DNA from: a virus
Direction: 5' to 3' (one strand)
IMG/VR virus record: IMGVR_UViG_3300030090_000892
Coordinates: 1-25,347 of that record
DNA length: 25,347 nucleotides
The stretch's first letter is position 1. Every line of letters starts with the position of its first letter. Below the pieces are notes generated by a model. That model was given only the letters and a program-made list of their open reading frames with translations. It searched no databases and was not told the origin of the DNA. Positions 20,237 to 25,347 of the stretch are shown piece after piece. The position numbers were made by a program, and so were the translations under genes.

Positions 20237-20567
20237 TTAACTGGATGCTAACCGCAACGCCGCCAGCGTGTTCTTGAACGCTTGTCTCTTTCCAGCCCAT
20301 TCGTGTCTTGGCCCAGAATATTGCCGCTGACGTGTCTCCGTTGACGGCCTTGTTGAATAACGTGCCGCCTATCTTTGCATTGGCTTTTGTCGCCGCTGTG
20401 TCTAGTTCCTTGCGGAAATGCTTTCTCAGAGTTTTGTCATCAATCCCATCACGGATGACCATCGCTATATTAGACTGCGGTATGCCCACCGCCGACATTT
20501 GTTCAACCAGCTTCCGCTCTTCTTCCGTTGGCTTAAACGTGGGCTTTGTAACCTTTTTAGGCGGCAT
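20214..20567 (-). CDS. terS: Terminase small subunit (putative)
   Basis: 117 residues. A helix-turn-helix-like N-terminal half (TEEERKLVEQMSAVGIPQSN, then IAMVIRDGIDDKTLRKHFRK) is followed by GGTLFNKAVNGDTSAAIFWA and KTRMGWKE, a signature shared by many small terminase or packaging DNA-binding proteins. It sits immediately upstream of terL with a 23-nt overlap, and its start overlaps the end of the ParB-methyltransferase gene by 11 nt. It would recognise the packaging site and load the large subunit. Confidence 0.85.
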   Translation of the reverse strand: MPPKKVTKPTFKPTEEERKLVEQMSAVGIPQSNIAMVIRDGIDDKTLRKHFRKELDTAATKANAKIGGTLFNKAVNGDTSAAIFWAKTRMGWKETSVQEHAGGVAVSIQLNATKSGN

Positions 20568-21795
20568 CGGCCTTTATAGTCGGGAAAATCTCCCCGCTAT
20601 CCTCCAGCTTTGCCTTTTTGCCCGTGAAGTCTTGCCACCGCTTTATAGCCACATCGACGTATGCAGGGCTTAATTCCATTGCGTAAATACAACGCCCGGT
20701 CATCTCTCCCGCTATGATTGTCGTTCCGCTACCAGAGAACGGTTCATATACGGCCTGACCGGGGTCTGAGCTATTCAATATGTAATGCTCAAATAGCTCG
20801 ACAGGCTTCTGACTCATGTGTTCCTTATTCGCCGCGTGTTTGCACTTAAAAGTTTGCGTTGAACTTGCAAGGCGAATTGTCTTTGCCTTTCCTTTAAAAC
20901 AATACAAGGCAAATTCGACATCTTTAAAATACCACCGATTTGGGATGCCGTTTGGCTTCTGCCATATTAGTGTGTTGTGATATTTAAAACCGCTTTCATG
21001 TAACGCTGTTGAAATCTCTGATAGCTTCCTATCATTCGACATTACATAGGCATCACTGTTCTTCGCAAGATGGACAAACGCCAACCCCATCCAATCCTTT
21101 AAGTCGGGAATCTCAAACATCTTCCCATGATTTACAGGGTAACTCTTTGCCATCCACCCCCCGTTTATCATTCCAGGGTTCGTGTAATGCGTTTTCGATG
21201 TTGGCGTTACTTCATAAGGCGGGTCGGTCACCATTAAGTGAGGCTCGACATTCGCTAACAGCTTTGTGACGCTTGTCTCGACCGTGCTATCGCCGCACAT
21301 CAATCTGTGCTTTCCCAACAACCAAACGTCACCCTCTTTTGTAACAGGCTCGTCAGGTAGGTCAGGCACCTCGTCGGGGTCAGTTAAGCCTTCATTCTTG
21401 TCTGCAAGTATTGCCGCCAGTTCGTTGTCATCAAAACCAATCAGCGAAAGGTCAAACCCTTCCTTGTCTAAATCCCCCATCTCTAGGGAGAGCATCTCCA
21501 TATCCCAACCCGCATTTAACGCCAGCTTATTGTCTGCAATGACGTATGCCTTGCGTTGATTTGGAGTCAGGTGCGCCAATTCAATGGTTGGCACTTTATC
21601 TAAGCCTAATTTCCTTGCCGCTAGGACACGCCCATGCCCCGCTATGATGCCACCCGTTTCGTCAACAAGCACAGGGTTATTGAACCCGAACTCCTTTATC
21701 GACGCGGCAATCTGAGCCACTTGAGCGTCATCGTGTGTCCTTGAGTTAGAGGCATAAGGGATTAAACCCGTAACCTCTTTTTCGATTACTTCCAT
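20557..21795 (-). CDS. ParB-like domain fused to DNA methyltransferase
   Basis: 412 residues. Residues about 1-130 form a ParB/sulfiredoxin-type domain (LIPYASNSRTH, IIAGHGRVLAARKLG with GHGR at 53-56, YVIADNKLAL). Residues about 155-390 form an N4/N6-type methyltransferase: GDS at 168-170, catalytic DPPY at 191-194, SQKPVEL at 328-334, the SAM-binding EPFSGSGTT at 351-359 and AMELSPAYVDVAI at 372-384. DPPY before FxGxG marks the beta-type order. Such fusions are frequent in phages, next to terminase genes, and modify phage DNA, plausibly against restriction. The SD is GGAG 6 nt before ATG. It starts 27 nt after the preceding gene. Confidence 0.93.
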   Translation of the reverse strand: MEVIEKEVTGLIPYASNSRTHDDAQVAQIAASIKEFGFNNPVLVDETGGIIAGHGRVLAARKLGLDKVPTIELAHLTPNQRKAYVIADNKLALNAGWDMEMLSLEMGDLDKEGFDLSLIGFDDNELAAILADKNEGLTDPDEVPDLPDEPVTKEGDVWLLGKHRLMCGDSTVETSVTKLLANVEPHLMVTDPPYEVTPTSKTHYTNPGMINGGWMAKSYPVNHGKMFEIPDLKDWMGLAFVHLAKNSDAYVMSNDRKLSEISTALHESGFKYHNTLIWQKPNGIPNRWYFKDVEFALYCFKGKAKTIRLASSTQTFKCKHAANKEHMSQKPVELFEHYILNSSDPGQAVYEPFSGSGTTIIAGEMTGRCIYAMELSPAYVDVAIKRWQDFTGKKAKLEDSGEIFPTIKADAA

Positions 21796-22999: not shown

Positions 23000-23438
23000 A
23001 ATGATCCGCTAGGTTATCTAGAACGATCCTTAACGCCCCCAATATTTCACGGACATCAACCTTTTGCTTTCCTAACCCTTTACTTACGGGTCTTTCCAAC
23101 CCGACATAATCCCACAAATAATCGCTGCCAATCGAACCCACGGCCTTCAATGCTTCATTAACTCGATTCCTAGCTTCCAGGGTTTTGACCGCAATGTGAT
23201 CCGAAGCCATTACTCTCGCCACCTTTTCTAAATCCACAATGGCGTAATTGTCTCCAAAGTTTGCAGTTTCAAAATCAAAATTAAACATTCTTGCAGCGGT
23301 GGCGTGACGCTGTTCTAACTTTCCCTCACGATGCCAGCGTTCAAAAACACTCAACCGCCGCTGCCTATAGACTCCCGCCTTCGGGGTTTCTTCAATTACT
23401 ACTGGCTCACCGGGGTCAATTTTAAGAGCGTTTTTCAT
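22989..23438 (-). CDS. DUF6456-like protein
   Basis: A 149-residue protein. The N-terminal part (AGVYRQRRLSVFERWHREGK) is basic. The central part includes HATAARMFNFDFETANFGDN and a helix (VKTLEARNRVNEALKAVG). The C-terminal 45 residues (DYLWDYVGLERPVSKGLGKQ, then DVREILGALRIVLDNLADHY) follow the pattern of DUF6456: a 'Vcc...lke.E' segment, then K...LR.ALD.LA.HY. That family is found mainly in Alphaproteobacteria and their phages. Coupled to its neighbours by ATGA and by an 11-nt overlap. The role is unknown, probably DNA-related. Confidence 0.65.
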   Translation of the reverse strand: MKNALKIDPGEPVVIEETPKAGVYRQRRLSVFERWHREGKLEQRHATAARMFNFDFETANFGDNYAIVDLEKVARVMASDHIAVKTLEARNRVNEALKAVGSIGSDYLWDYVGLERPVSKGLGKQKVDVREILGALRIVLDNLADHYAI

Positions 23439-24151
23439 AACTCTAAAACCCTTTGTTCAATTTTATTAGGCGGCTCAACAAACAAATCGGGTTGCTTATA
23501 TACGTCCTCAATCCGCTGACAAGCTACGTCAAAATACTTTGGCTCTAGTTCTATTCCGATAAACTTACGGCCCAGTTTTGCACAAGCGACTCCTGTTGTT
23601 CCGCTACCCATAAACGGGTCAACAGTTTCATCAAGGTCAACCCATTCAACCAGACGATGCATTAAAGCATCAGGCTTGCCCCATGCGCCCAACGGCCCCG
23701 ACATATTGCGCGGGAAAATCTGAACACTGTTTAGGTGCTTGCGTAAATTTGGAGTGTAAGTTCTGTTTCCAAGGCAATCTTTGCCAATAGAAGACTTCCC
23801 TTTTTTTTGAGGCTCCACTTCTTGAAATGGGCCAACGGCGGCTTTTCCAGCTAATCCGTACAAATAAATGTAATCGTGGGTCACTCTTGGAAGATTAGGG
23901 CTTACCCATCTGCCGTCTGCAAAATGCCAGACAAGCTCACAACGTGGTTTTCCAAGTTTCCGCTCAACCGCGTACCTCGACGGAGGAGAACAGAATGCAA
24001 TAATACTTTGGGCATTTGGAATTGACAATGTTGCCCAATCCTCAAACGGTGGATCAAGAATTAACGACTCTATTGGCCCAAGCGTTGGAATGATCTCAAG
24101 GCAGTCGCCTTGATATAACGTGCAATCTCCTATTTGGACTTTATTGACCAT
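23435..24151 (-). CDS. Beta-class N4/N6 DNA methyltransferase
   Basis: 238 residues. Catalytic motif LILDPPFEDW (DPPF at 33-36) precedes the SAM-binding motif DPFMGSGTTGVACAKLG (178-194) and FIGIELEPKYFDVA (197-210), with WGKPDALM (157-164) between them. This is the beta-class order, and D-P-P-F suggests adenine-N6 methylation. It is a stand-alone enzyme without a restriction partner in the window, so probably a phage orphan methyltransferase protecting or marking phage DNA. The start overlaps the preceding stop by 11 nt. The target sequence cannot be deduced. Confidence 0.93.
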   Translation of the reverse strand: MVNKVQIGDCTLYQGDCLEIIPTLGPIESLILDPPFEDWATLSIPNAQSIIAFCSPPSRYAVERKLGKPRCELVWHFADGRWVSPNLPRVTHDYIYLYGLAGKAAVGPFQEVEPQKKGKSSIGKDCLGNRTYTPNLRKHLNSVQIFPRNMSGPLGAWGKPDALMHRLVEWVDLDETVDPFMGSGTTGVACAKLGRKFIGIELEPKYFDVACQRIEDVYKQPDLFVEPPNKIEQRVLEL

Positions 24152-24559: not shown

Positions 24560-24604
24560 CTATTTCTCTCCCCTAGTTTGACTCTTGGTGAGTGTCTGAA
24601 GCTA

Positions 24605-24770
24605 AAGGCATAGCAAGACCACCCTGATAAGAATCAAGGCGGTGCCAGCCTAAAGCGTAAAGTTTGACTCCCGGAGCCGCGCCTTCGCTTTCGGCCCATT
24701 GCGTCAGATAGCTCCGCAACGGTTTGTGTCTGCTTCCGACCTTGCTATCAGGCCGCTAACCGCCCCCACA
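24605..24770 (-). ncRNA. Candidate structured RNA/leader in gene-free spacer
   Basis: The spacer 24560-24837 has no credible gene. Minus-strand RNA shows long-range pairings. Fold B: ATAGCAAG (24748-24741) with CTTGCTAT (24617-24610), 8 perfect pairs, extended outward by GGC/GCC and AGC/GCU with bulges. Immediately adjacent is an 11-bp hairpin 24643-24633/24628-24618 with a 4-nt loop and two G.U pairs. Fold A: GGCGGT (24764-24759) with ACCGCC (24643-24638) and GCCTGA[T]AGC (24753-24744) with GCTTTAGGC (24656-24648). The two folds share bases and exclude each other. An internal CGGAGC/GCTCCG stem is possible in both. The G.U pairs favour the minus strand. It lies upstream of the zinc-finger/methyltransferase genes. 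No known class is recognised, and chance pairing remains possible. Confidence 0.4.
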
Positions 24771-24837
24771 CATTTCGCACCGGGCTTGCCCTTGGTTAGA
24801 CCCCACAGTAGGGCTTTAAATTGAGGTGCTGCCGTTT

Positions 24838-25182
24838 TTAGCCGACCACACTCAATCGAGGCTTCTCCATGCGCTCTAACAAAGTACGCATCTTGTCAGC
24901 CAGTTCTTTACGTTCATCTTCGTCTTGGTCTTCAAATCTCGCTTGGTTTAACCAAGTCGATGGCATTGGAATAAATCGCTCTTCTTGTTCTTCTTCGATC
25001 CGCATTTTCCAACGGAACGCCAAAGCCGCCTCTACCAATTCCTCTGGGGTAGCCTTCGCCAGAATCTTTACGCCACAAGTAGAAGTCATTTTCCCGCCGC
25101 CCGTGATCTCATCAAAGGTCGCACGGGCCACCGCTTTCTGTGACTTGCGAGGGTAGGCTTTCCAGAAATCTTCAAACGACAT
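24838..25182 (-). CDS. Replication-type small protein with FWKAYPRK motif
   Basis: 114 residues from the chosen ATG (MSFEDFWKAYPRKSQKAVAR). A start 32 codons further upstream would lie within the preceding gene and lacks an SD, whereas this one has AGAGGT 6 nt upstream. FEDFWKAYPRK, then a TPEELVEAALAF helix and RFIPMPSTWLNQARFEDQ, is the pattern of the C-terminal domain of phage and plasmid replication proteins (FWxxYPxK ... PxxWLNxxRWxD). Here it occurs without the usual N-terminal winged helix, so it is a stand-alone version. Its ATG overlaps the upstream DnaA-like gene. Confidence 0.75.
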   Translation of the reverse strand: MSFEDFWKAYPRKSQKAVARATFDEITGGGKMTSTCGVKILAKATPEELVEAALAFRWKMRIEEEQEERFIPMPSTWLNQARFEDQDEDERKELADKMRTLLERMEKPRLSVVG

Positions 25183-25347
25183 TCGGCACCTCTGCAATGT
25201 TAAGGGCTTTCTCGCATCGGCGTATTGCGCGACTAAAATCTTGGCACTTGTTCCAACGATCAAATTGTGAAAGTGCATGAGAAACAGTAGAATGATCTTT
25301 GTGAAAAAAGCGGCCTATTTTGGCTGGCCCTGCCCCATTGTACTTGT
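25172..25347 (-). CDS. Partial protein with DnaA domain IV-like DNA-binding motif
   Basis: The 5' part lies beyond the right edge; 57 codons plus stop remain. They read KYNGAGPAKIGRFFHKDHST then VSHALSQFDRW. The I-G-x-F-x-x-K-D-H-S-T-V-x-H-A signature is that of the DnaA C-terminal domain, which reads DnaA boxes. No evidence for the AAA+ part is available here, so it may be a full DnaA-like initiator or a small phage protein with only this domain. The stop overlaps the ATG of the next replication-type gene by 11 nt, which suggests the two act together at the replication origin. Confidence 0.8.
   Translation of the reverse strand, partial: KYNGAGPAKIGRFFHKDHSTVSHALSQFDRWNKCQDFSRAIRRCEKALNIAEVPNVV

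What the first reader, a model, noticed from the sequence alone, without database searches (positions are those of the whole stretch)
24560..24837. Gene-free spacer with two mutually exclusive long-range RNA folds (candidate new riboswitch-like or ncRNA element)
In an otherwise gapless genome this 278-nt spacer stands out. The 3' strand of an 8-bp perfect helix (24748-24741 with 24617-24610) begins exactly where an 11-bp hairpin (24643-24618) ends, a coaxial arrangement typical of real junction RNAs. The ACCGCC of that hairpin can instead pair with GGCGGT at 24764-24759, backed by a second 9-bp bulged helix. A CTCACC segment (24592-24587) could also mask the GGGGAG SD of the downstream zinc-finger gene with one mismatch. 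It heads an operon with a SAM-using methyltransferase. What it senses, if anything, is unknown; any chance-paired sequence of this size also has some structure.
Basis: partly seen in the sequence, partly recalled or inferred. Interest (0 to 1): 0.62.

Follow-up and report, generated by a model that had tools for sequence, protein, structure and literature searches.

The report
Phage noncoding RNA with duplicated end
The gene-free stretch encodes a real, intricately folded noncoding RNA shared by many phages, genomic islands and bacteria; it belongs to a larger, barely studied RNA group in which a short segment near the end appears twice, and it is not the riboswitch first proposed.

Summary
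The spacer is real and is an RNA gene, not a riboswitch. It lies on the minus strand, about 24578-24857, starts inside the 3' end of the upstream gene and ends before the downstream gene. In this fold 97.1% of cells pair and 19 pairs change on both sides; slid controls give 0-3. Across 24-27 divergent lineages P1, P3 and the kissing loop beat every permutation. Rfam RF02932 (Betaproteobacteria-1) matches below threshold (32 vs 49.4 bits). A model trained without the window or its kin finds the window (E 2e-16) and the short RF02932-type RNAs. New here: both classes carry a 3' part outside the Rfam model in which an ~8-nt, lineage-specific segment X is duplicated (GGCUCC-G-X1 ... UCACC-A-X2). 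Over 34 lineages 249 of 272 positions are identical, and 15 of 23 differences are G in X1, A in X2. Function is unproven. I favour a trans-acting RNA whose X copies serve one partner.

The parts
24578..24857 (-). Whole structured RNA (long class), from the 5' strand of P1 to the end of X2
   Evidence: Conserved block in 11 phage relatives; held-out covariance-model hit over its 5' part, 60.8 bits, E 2e-16
24818..24856 (-). P1 hairpin with near-invariant GGUCGG (24847-24842) and ACGGCAGC (24835-24828); the stop codon of the upstream ORF (24840-24838) lies in its loop
   Evidence: Covariation 3 of 9 pairs changed on both sides; permutation z 11.5; RF02932 alignment
24788..24814 (-). P2 (24814-24811 with 24791-24788) enclosing invariant UACUGUGGG (24810-24802) and the 5' strand of P3
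   Evidence: Permutation z 10.2 across 24 lineages; invariant among close relatives
24756..24799 (-). P3, 24799-24794 with 24761-24756, forms a pseudoknot with P2
   Evidence: 5 of 6 pairs changed on both sides, 100% paired; permutation z 10.4
24762..24785 (-). P4 hairpin, 24785-24782 with 24765-24762
   Evidence: 2 of 4 pairs changed on both sides, 100% paired
24725..24772 (-). Helix K: P4-loop strand 24772-24768 with 24729-24725 (second pseudoknot)
   Evidence: 1 of 5 pairs changed on both sides; permutation z 4.7
24737..24755 (-). P5 hairpin; loop GAUAGC (24749-24744) is one half of the kissing loop
24696..24722 (-). P6 hairpin; loop GCUAUC (24712-24707) is the other half of the kissing loop
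   Evidence: P6: 6 of 8 pairs changed on both sides; loop-loop pairing in 27 sequences z 11.8, 0 of 5000 permutations
24664..24678 (-). unit1: GGCUCC (24678-24673), G (24672), X1 = GGAGUCAA (24671-24664)
   Evidence: Direct-repeat analysis
24606..24651 (-). 3' hairpin domain H3; apical hairpin 24643-24618
   Evidence: Permutation z 9.7 across lineages
24578..24591 (-). unit2: UCACC (24591-24587), A (24586), X2 = AGAGUCAA (24585-24578); the homologous RNA of the class ends here
24838..25278 (-). Upstream replication-initiation-like gene; its last codons overlap P1. Relatives start at MSFEDFWK, residue 33
   Evidence: PHROGs replication initiation protein, E 1e-10; relatives

Best explanation
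The spacer is a gene for a complex structured noncoding RNA of about 280 nt. It is the long class of a superfamily whose short class is Rfam RF02932. Shown: a conserved fold with P1, two pseudoknots (P2/P3 and helix K), a P5-P6 kissing loop and a 3' hairpin, flanked by two copies of one recognition unit. Inferred: it acts in trans as a folded RNA or ribonucleoprotein rather than as a switch for the next gene. The two X segments are read by the same partner. X1 is held in a small hairpin by the preceding GGCUCC and X2 is presented at the 3' edge; the copies can also compete for GGCUCC, so that one is sequestered while the other is exposed. My confidence in the RNA gene and its relationship is about 0.9; in trans action about 0.65; in the competing-copy mechanism about 0.25.
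For: Covariation: 97.1% of 680 cells paired, 19 pairs and 58 cells changed on both sides, no shuffle reaches it, slid controls 0-3 pairs. Within-lineage against cross-lineage pairing: P1 z 11.5, P2 10.2, P3 10.4, K 4.7, H3 9.7; kissing loop z 11.8 in 27 sequences. Model R1, built from 23 sequences without the window or its kin, hits the window at E 2e-16, Bacteroidetes copies at 2e-9 to 8e-15 and most RF02932-type RNAs at about 1e-7 to 5e-10; two chance pattern hits score only 17.6 and 14.6 bits. Short-class RNAs pass the RF02932 cut-off. X1 = X2: 7.33 of 8 matches against 2.93 for permuted partners, 0 of 5000; 249 of 272 positions identical over 34 lineages. X1 pairs with GGCUCC better than shuffled X (p 3e-4) and better than X2 (p 0.004). 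Trans action: neighbours vary among phages, and chromosomal copies stand alone, 1-4 per genome, with a promoter-like GTATACATA about 40 nt upstream of GGUCGG in Paraburkholderia/Caballeronia.
Against: No transcription or probing data. MFE alone is unremarkable. No promoter- or terminator-like site was found on its strand in the window, so it may be cut from an mRNA. No partner for X is found in cis, and no trans partner is identified. Positions of X not paired with GGCUCC are also identical, which competition for GGCUCC alone does not explain. Some relatives (L179, L180, Cupriavidus copies) lack a clear repeat. Parsing picked the CACC that gave the best repeat, so the repeat statistics are somewhat inflated, although an unconstrained search found the same register.
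Confidence: 0.72

Rival explanations
1. Cis-acting leader or riboswitch controlling the downstream gene through alternative folds and SD masking.
For: The element precedes a gene on the same strand in the window, and X1/X2 can compete for GGCUCC.
Against: The named helices and SD mask are not conserved. The next gene, its strand and its distance vary. Chromosomal copies need no downstream gene.
Confidence: 0.06
2. Guide-like RNA: X1 is an internal copy of the flank X2 and pairs with the template-strand DNA at X2, making an R-loop at its own locus for replication priming or an RNA-guided transaction.
For: Copies drift together while X itself differs between lineages. 15 of 23 differences are X1=G/X2=A, as rG.dT wobble would allow. 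DNA just after X2 is AT-rich, 0.61 against about 0.4-0.5 further away. Several phage copies lie next to replication genes.
Against: Eight base pairs are few for an R-loop. No RT, IS110 or tyrosine recombinase is found in the window's virus record, and RT and IS110 are absent from all RNA-bearing viral records searched. The G/A bias is also explained by X1 pairing with GGCUCC.
Confidence: 0.12
3. Two sites for one sequence-specific, co-evolving RNA-binding protein, with no strand exchange.
For: The repeated unit is bipartite (two nt, a C.CC core, 8 nt) with a fixed offset and X has a loose NNRRGCAN-like preference.
Against: No linked conserved protein gene was seen, and free variation of X would require a rapidly co-evolving protein.
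Confidence: 0.25
4. A DNA element (origin, attachment or single-strand hairpin site) rather than an RNA.
For: Compensatory changes cannot by themselves tell RNA from ssDNA. Copies lie in islands near recombinases, flanks are shuffled and some copies are 3'-truncated.
Against: GU pairs are tolerated in helices; a promoter-like box precedes chromosomal copies; RF02932 is curated as an sRNA; the window's virus record carries no detected tyrosine integrase.
Confidence: 0.1

Closest known systems
Rfam RF02932, Betaproteobacteria-1 RNA (function unknown)
   Same: Same P1 with GGUCGG/ACGGCAGC, same CUGUGGG segment, P2/P3 and P4/K architecture in the same order
   Different: The window scores 32 bits against a cut-off of 49.4. 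The long class inserts a P5-P6 kissing-loop domain. The GGCUCC-X1, 3' hairpin and CACC-X2 part lies outside the 120-nt Rfam model in both classes.
Large ornate phage and bacterial RNAs GOLLD and ROOL (PMC12286853; compared from that abstract and my own knowledge)
   Same: Structured noncoding RNAs of unknown function, often carried by phages, with loop-loop contacts
   Different: This RNA is about 280 nt, gives no Rfam match to them, has intramolecular kissing loops, and has the duplicated X segment
IS110 bridge RNA and TnpB omega RNA (comparison from own knowledge)
   Same: A short internal segment matches DNA at the edge of the element
   Different: X1 is a contiguous direct copy of X2. No IS110 transposase was found in 18 viral records, and no TnpB-like domain above the cut-off.

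Membership tests
RF02932 Betaproteobacteria-1 RNA | Covariance-model score at or above the gathering cut-off, 49.4 bits | tested here: not met
   32.0 bits for the window, 38.8 for L002
RF02932 Betaproteobacteria-1 RNA | P1 with GGUCGG/ACGGCAGC followed by CUGUGGG | tested here: met
   24847-24842, 24835-24828 and 24808-24802; alignments
Superfamily of long- and short-class RNAs (defined here) | Hit by a model trained without the sequence or its kin | tested here: met
   Window 60.8 bits, E 2e-16; short class mostly E about 1e-7 to 5e-10
Superfamily of long- and short-class RNAs (defined here) | Direct repeat X after GGCUCC-R and CACC-R | tested here: met
   GGAGUCAA/AGAGUCAA in the window; 62 elements
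Riboswitch | Conserved association with one downstream gene or pathway | tested here: not met
   Downstream gene differs in nearly all relatives
Riboswitch | Conserved alternative folds or SD mask | tested here: not met
Riboswitch | Ligand binding | not testable with these tools
   Needs in-line probing or a similar assay
Known RNA families (tRNA, tmRNA, group I/II introns, GOLLD, ROOL and others) | Rfam match at the gathering cut-off | tested here: not met
   No match in the window; RF02932 alone is significant at relaxed threshold
IS110 bridge RNA | Linked IS110 transposase | tested here: not met
   0 of 18 viral records
Retron or DRT template RNA | Linked reverse transcriptase | tested here: not met
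   0 of 24 viral records match PF00078; records may be fragments

The most novel reading that the evidence does not exclude
A new mobile-element-borne RNA system in which an internal segment (X1) is a wobble-tolerant copy of the RNA's own 3' flank (X2) and guides the RNA to its own DNA or a complementary strand, without a known recombinase or reverse transcriptase.
Probability: 0.1. Interest if true: 0.9.

Novelty: new variant of a known kind. Interest (0 to 1): 0.62.

Why it matters
An RNA family known only as a 120-nt orphan in betaproteobacteria proves to be the short form of a larger group spread over phages, genomic islands, Alpha- and Betaproteobacteria and Bacteroidetes, with an intricate tertiary architecture. 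The co-varying duplicated segment is a sharp, unexplained constraint that gives a direct handle on function: swapping X1, X2 or both predicts clear outcomes. At least one annotated phage (Paracoccus phage Shpa) carries it mislabelled as two hypothetical proteins.

Tried and rejected
MFE against shuffles: only z -1.57, because the real fold has pseudoknots. Anti-X partner in cis: none consistent within -400 to +700 nt or at any anchored offset; in Paraburkholderia X2 can pair with a downstream GAAUGC, but this is not general (read). RT template jumping: no RVT_1 in 24 viral records. IS110 and TnpB guides: not found. Tyrosine integrase: in 5 of 18 records including L001's virus, not the window's, so not required. 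Whole-region DNA search in annotated phages: no match; only a long-class query found Shpa. Plasmids: no match for the Paraburkholderia copy. Literature on RF02932/Betaproteobacteria-1: nothing in the held library; the primary paper was not held.

Full report
What is there. The spacer 24560-24837 lies between a replication-initiation-like gene (24838-25278, minus strand; PHROGs E 1e-10) and a 79-aa ORF. It contains no long or conserved ORF, and single-base indels between relatives break every frame. As a single sequence the fold is not remarkable: MFE -96.3 against -88.4 +/- 5.04, z -1.57, 11 of 200 shuffles as good.

Relatives found independently. Searching with the upstream protein gave three phage contigs with the same gene followed by the same spacer (L001-L003), although the following gene differs. 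Window and L001 are about 97-98% identical in the spacer. L002 and L003 differ in blocks that compensate each other, for example CUAACC/GGUUAG to UCUGAC/GUCAGA and GUUGCG/CGCAAU to AACAC/GUGUU. Conservation of those three motifs in pattern-found loci is by construction; everything else is not. Of these, 62 elements (37 viral, 25 genomic) could be parsed with the full layout. The others are chance hits, truncated copies, copies cut off by a contig end, or variants with another core.

The fold. In 11 close relatives the structure P1, P2, P3 (pseudoknotted with P2), P4, K (P4 loop to a strand 3' of P5), P5, P6, the P5-P6 kissing loop and H3 pairs in 97.1% of cells, with 19 pairs and 58 cells changed on both sides. 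Shuffles give 12.4 pairs and 18.6 cells, and partners slid by 1-3 columns give 0-3 pairs. Across 24 divergent lineages the longest complementary run within a lineage exceeds that of permuted partners for P1 (z 11.5), P2 (10.2), P3 (10.4), K (4.7) and H3 (9.7). With loops delimited, the kissing interaction gives z 11.8 in 27 sequences, 0 of 5000 permutations.

Relationship to known RNAs. Rfam gives no match at gathering cut-offs. At relaxed threshold RF02932, Betaproteobacteria-1 RNA, aligns to the first ~95 nt with 32.0 bits (38.8 in L002; cut-off 49.4). RNAs of the short class found by the pattern pass that cut-off at 84-96 bits in phages and up to 110 bits in Paraburkholderia and relatives. 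The Rfam model ends just before GGCUCC. Model R1, trained on 23 long-class sequences without the window or its kin, finds the window at 60.8 bits (E 2e-16), short-class RNAs at 27.7-51.8 bits, and Bacteroidetes copies at 37.9-55.6 bits. Two loci that merely match the pattern score 17.6 and 14.6. So the window is not a member of RF02932 as curated, but it is homologous to it. RF02932 is the short form of a wider superfamily and the window belongs to its long form, which adds the P5-P6 domain.

The duplicated unit. Both forms continue past the Rfam model with GGCUCC-R-X1, a hairpin domain, and (U/C)CACC-R-X2. X1 and X2 are direct copies in a fixed register. In the anchored scan this repeat is by far the strongest signal (z 17.0 long, 10.6 short), and it extends weakly upstream to the two bases before GGCUCC and UCACC. 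Over 34 lineages 249 of 272 positions agree; 15 of the 23 differences are G in X1 and A in X2. Permuting partners gives 2.93 of 8 matches against 7.33 observed. Parsing chose the best-matching CACC, so these numbers are somewhat inflated. X1 tends to pair with the preceding GGCUCC more than shuffled X does (p 3e-4) and more than X2 does (p 0.004), which accounts for part of the G/A bias. No conserved complement of X was found in cis.

Setting. In phages it often lies next to replication genes: replication-initiation-like gene here, primase/helicase in L018, L043, L047, L054 and L067 (my reading of their sequences), primase in Paracoccus phage Shpa, where it is annotated as two hypothetical proteins. 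Downstream genes vary. Several long-class chromosomal copies lie near what look by sequence like site-specific recombinases or type I restriction genes (L117, L181, L120, L162, L143, L159; my reading, not confirmed by a family search), one per genome in the 12 searched. Paraburkholderia and relatives carry 1-4 copies with a promoter-like GTATACATA box about 40 nt upstream of GGUCGG, in different flanks. The 20-70 nt after X2 are AT-rich. Reverse transcriptases and IS110 transposases are absent from the viral records searched.

How it most likely works. Shown: a conserved, compensating tertiary architecture, a duplicated segment whose copies agree, and independence from any one downstream gene. 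Inferred: a trans-acting folded RNA or RNP whose two X copies are recognised by one partner, with GGCUCC able to sequester one copy. The asymmetry G(X1)/A(X2) is also what pairing of X1 with the strand complementary to X2 would allow, so guide-like pairing with its own locus cannot be excluded. The riboswitch reading fails its own refutation tests, apart from 'no covariation', which is clearly answered in favour of a real RNA.

Limits. No expression data; virus records are fragments; the covariance model used here holds only 8 base pairs; metagenome contigs could not be scanned; the primary description of Betaproteobacteria-1 was not held in the library.

Noticed in passing
L212:3997-4392 (Paracoccus phage Shpa, KR072689.1 33048-33443): Annotated hypothetical proteins gp47 and gp48 overlap the RNA and are probably spurious gene calls; X1/X2 there are GCCAGCAA/ACCAGCAA.
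   Followed up: partly
L079/L191, L147/L148, L107/L172, L105, L125, L167, L098 (Burkholderiaceae chromosomes): Copies of the RNA gene lie in different flanks. Upstream and downstream neighbours are shuffled between genomes, some copies are 3'-truncated at different points, and L107 and L112 hold a second 5'-lacking copy 4-5 kb away.
   Followed up: partly
L136, L077, L152 (Bacteroidetes): Same RNA with another core before X, and stronger G-to-A asymmetry (GGGGGGAAGCAAGC against AGGAAAAAGCAAGC in L136).
   Followed up: partly
L081, L094, L134, L174, L184, L189 (Cupriavidus): Variants without recognisable GGCUCC/CACC units, followed by repeated GGATATCCTCAC/GTGAGGATATGC and GGTTATTCC/GGAATAACC inverted repeats.
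   Followed up: no
L069, downstream of X2 of the RNA (minus strand, below position 500): Tandem GTTACTGTA and GTTACCTA repeats follow X2 closely, iteron-like.
   Followed up: no
window 25172-25345 (-): Open-ended ORF with a DnaA domain IV-like motif (IGRFFHKDHSTVSHAL) upstream of the replication-initiation-like gene; the window ends at an N run in the assembly (L006).
   Followed up: no
window 20557-21795 (-): Fused ParB-like N-terminal domain and DNA methyltransferase; a second methyltransferase lies at 23435-24151.
   Followed up: no
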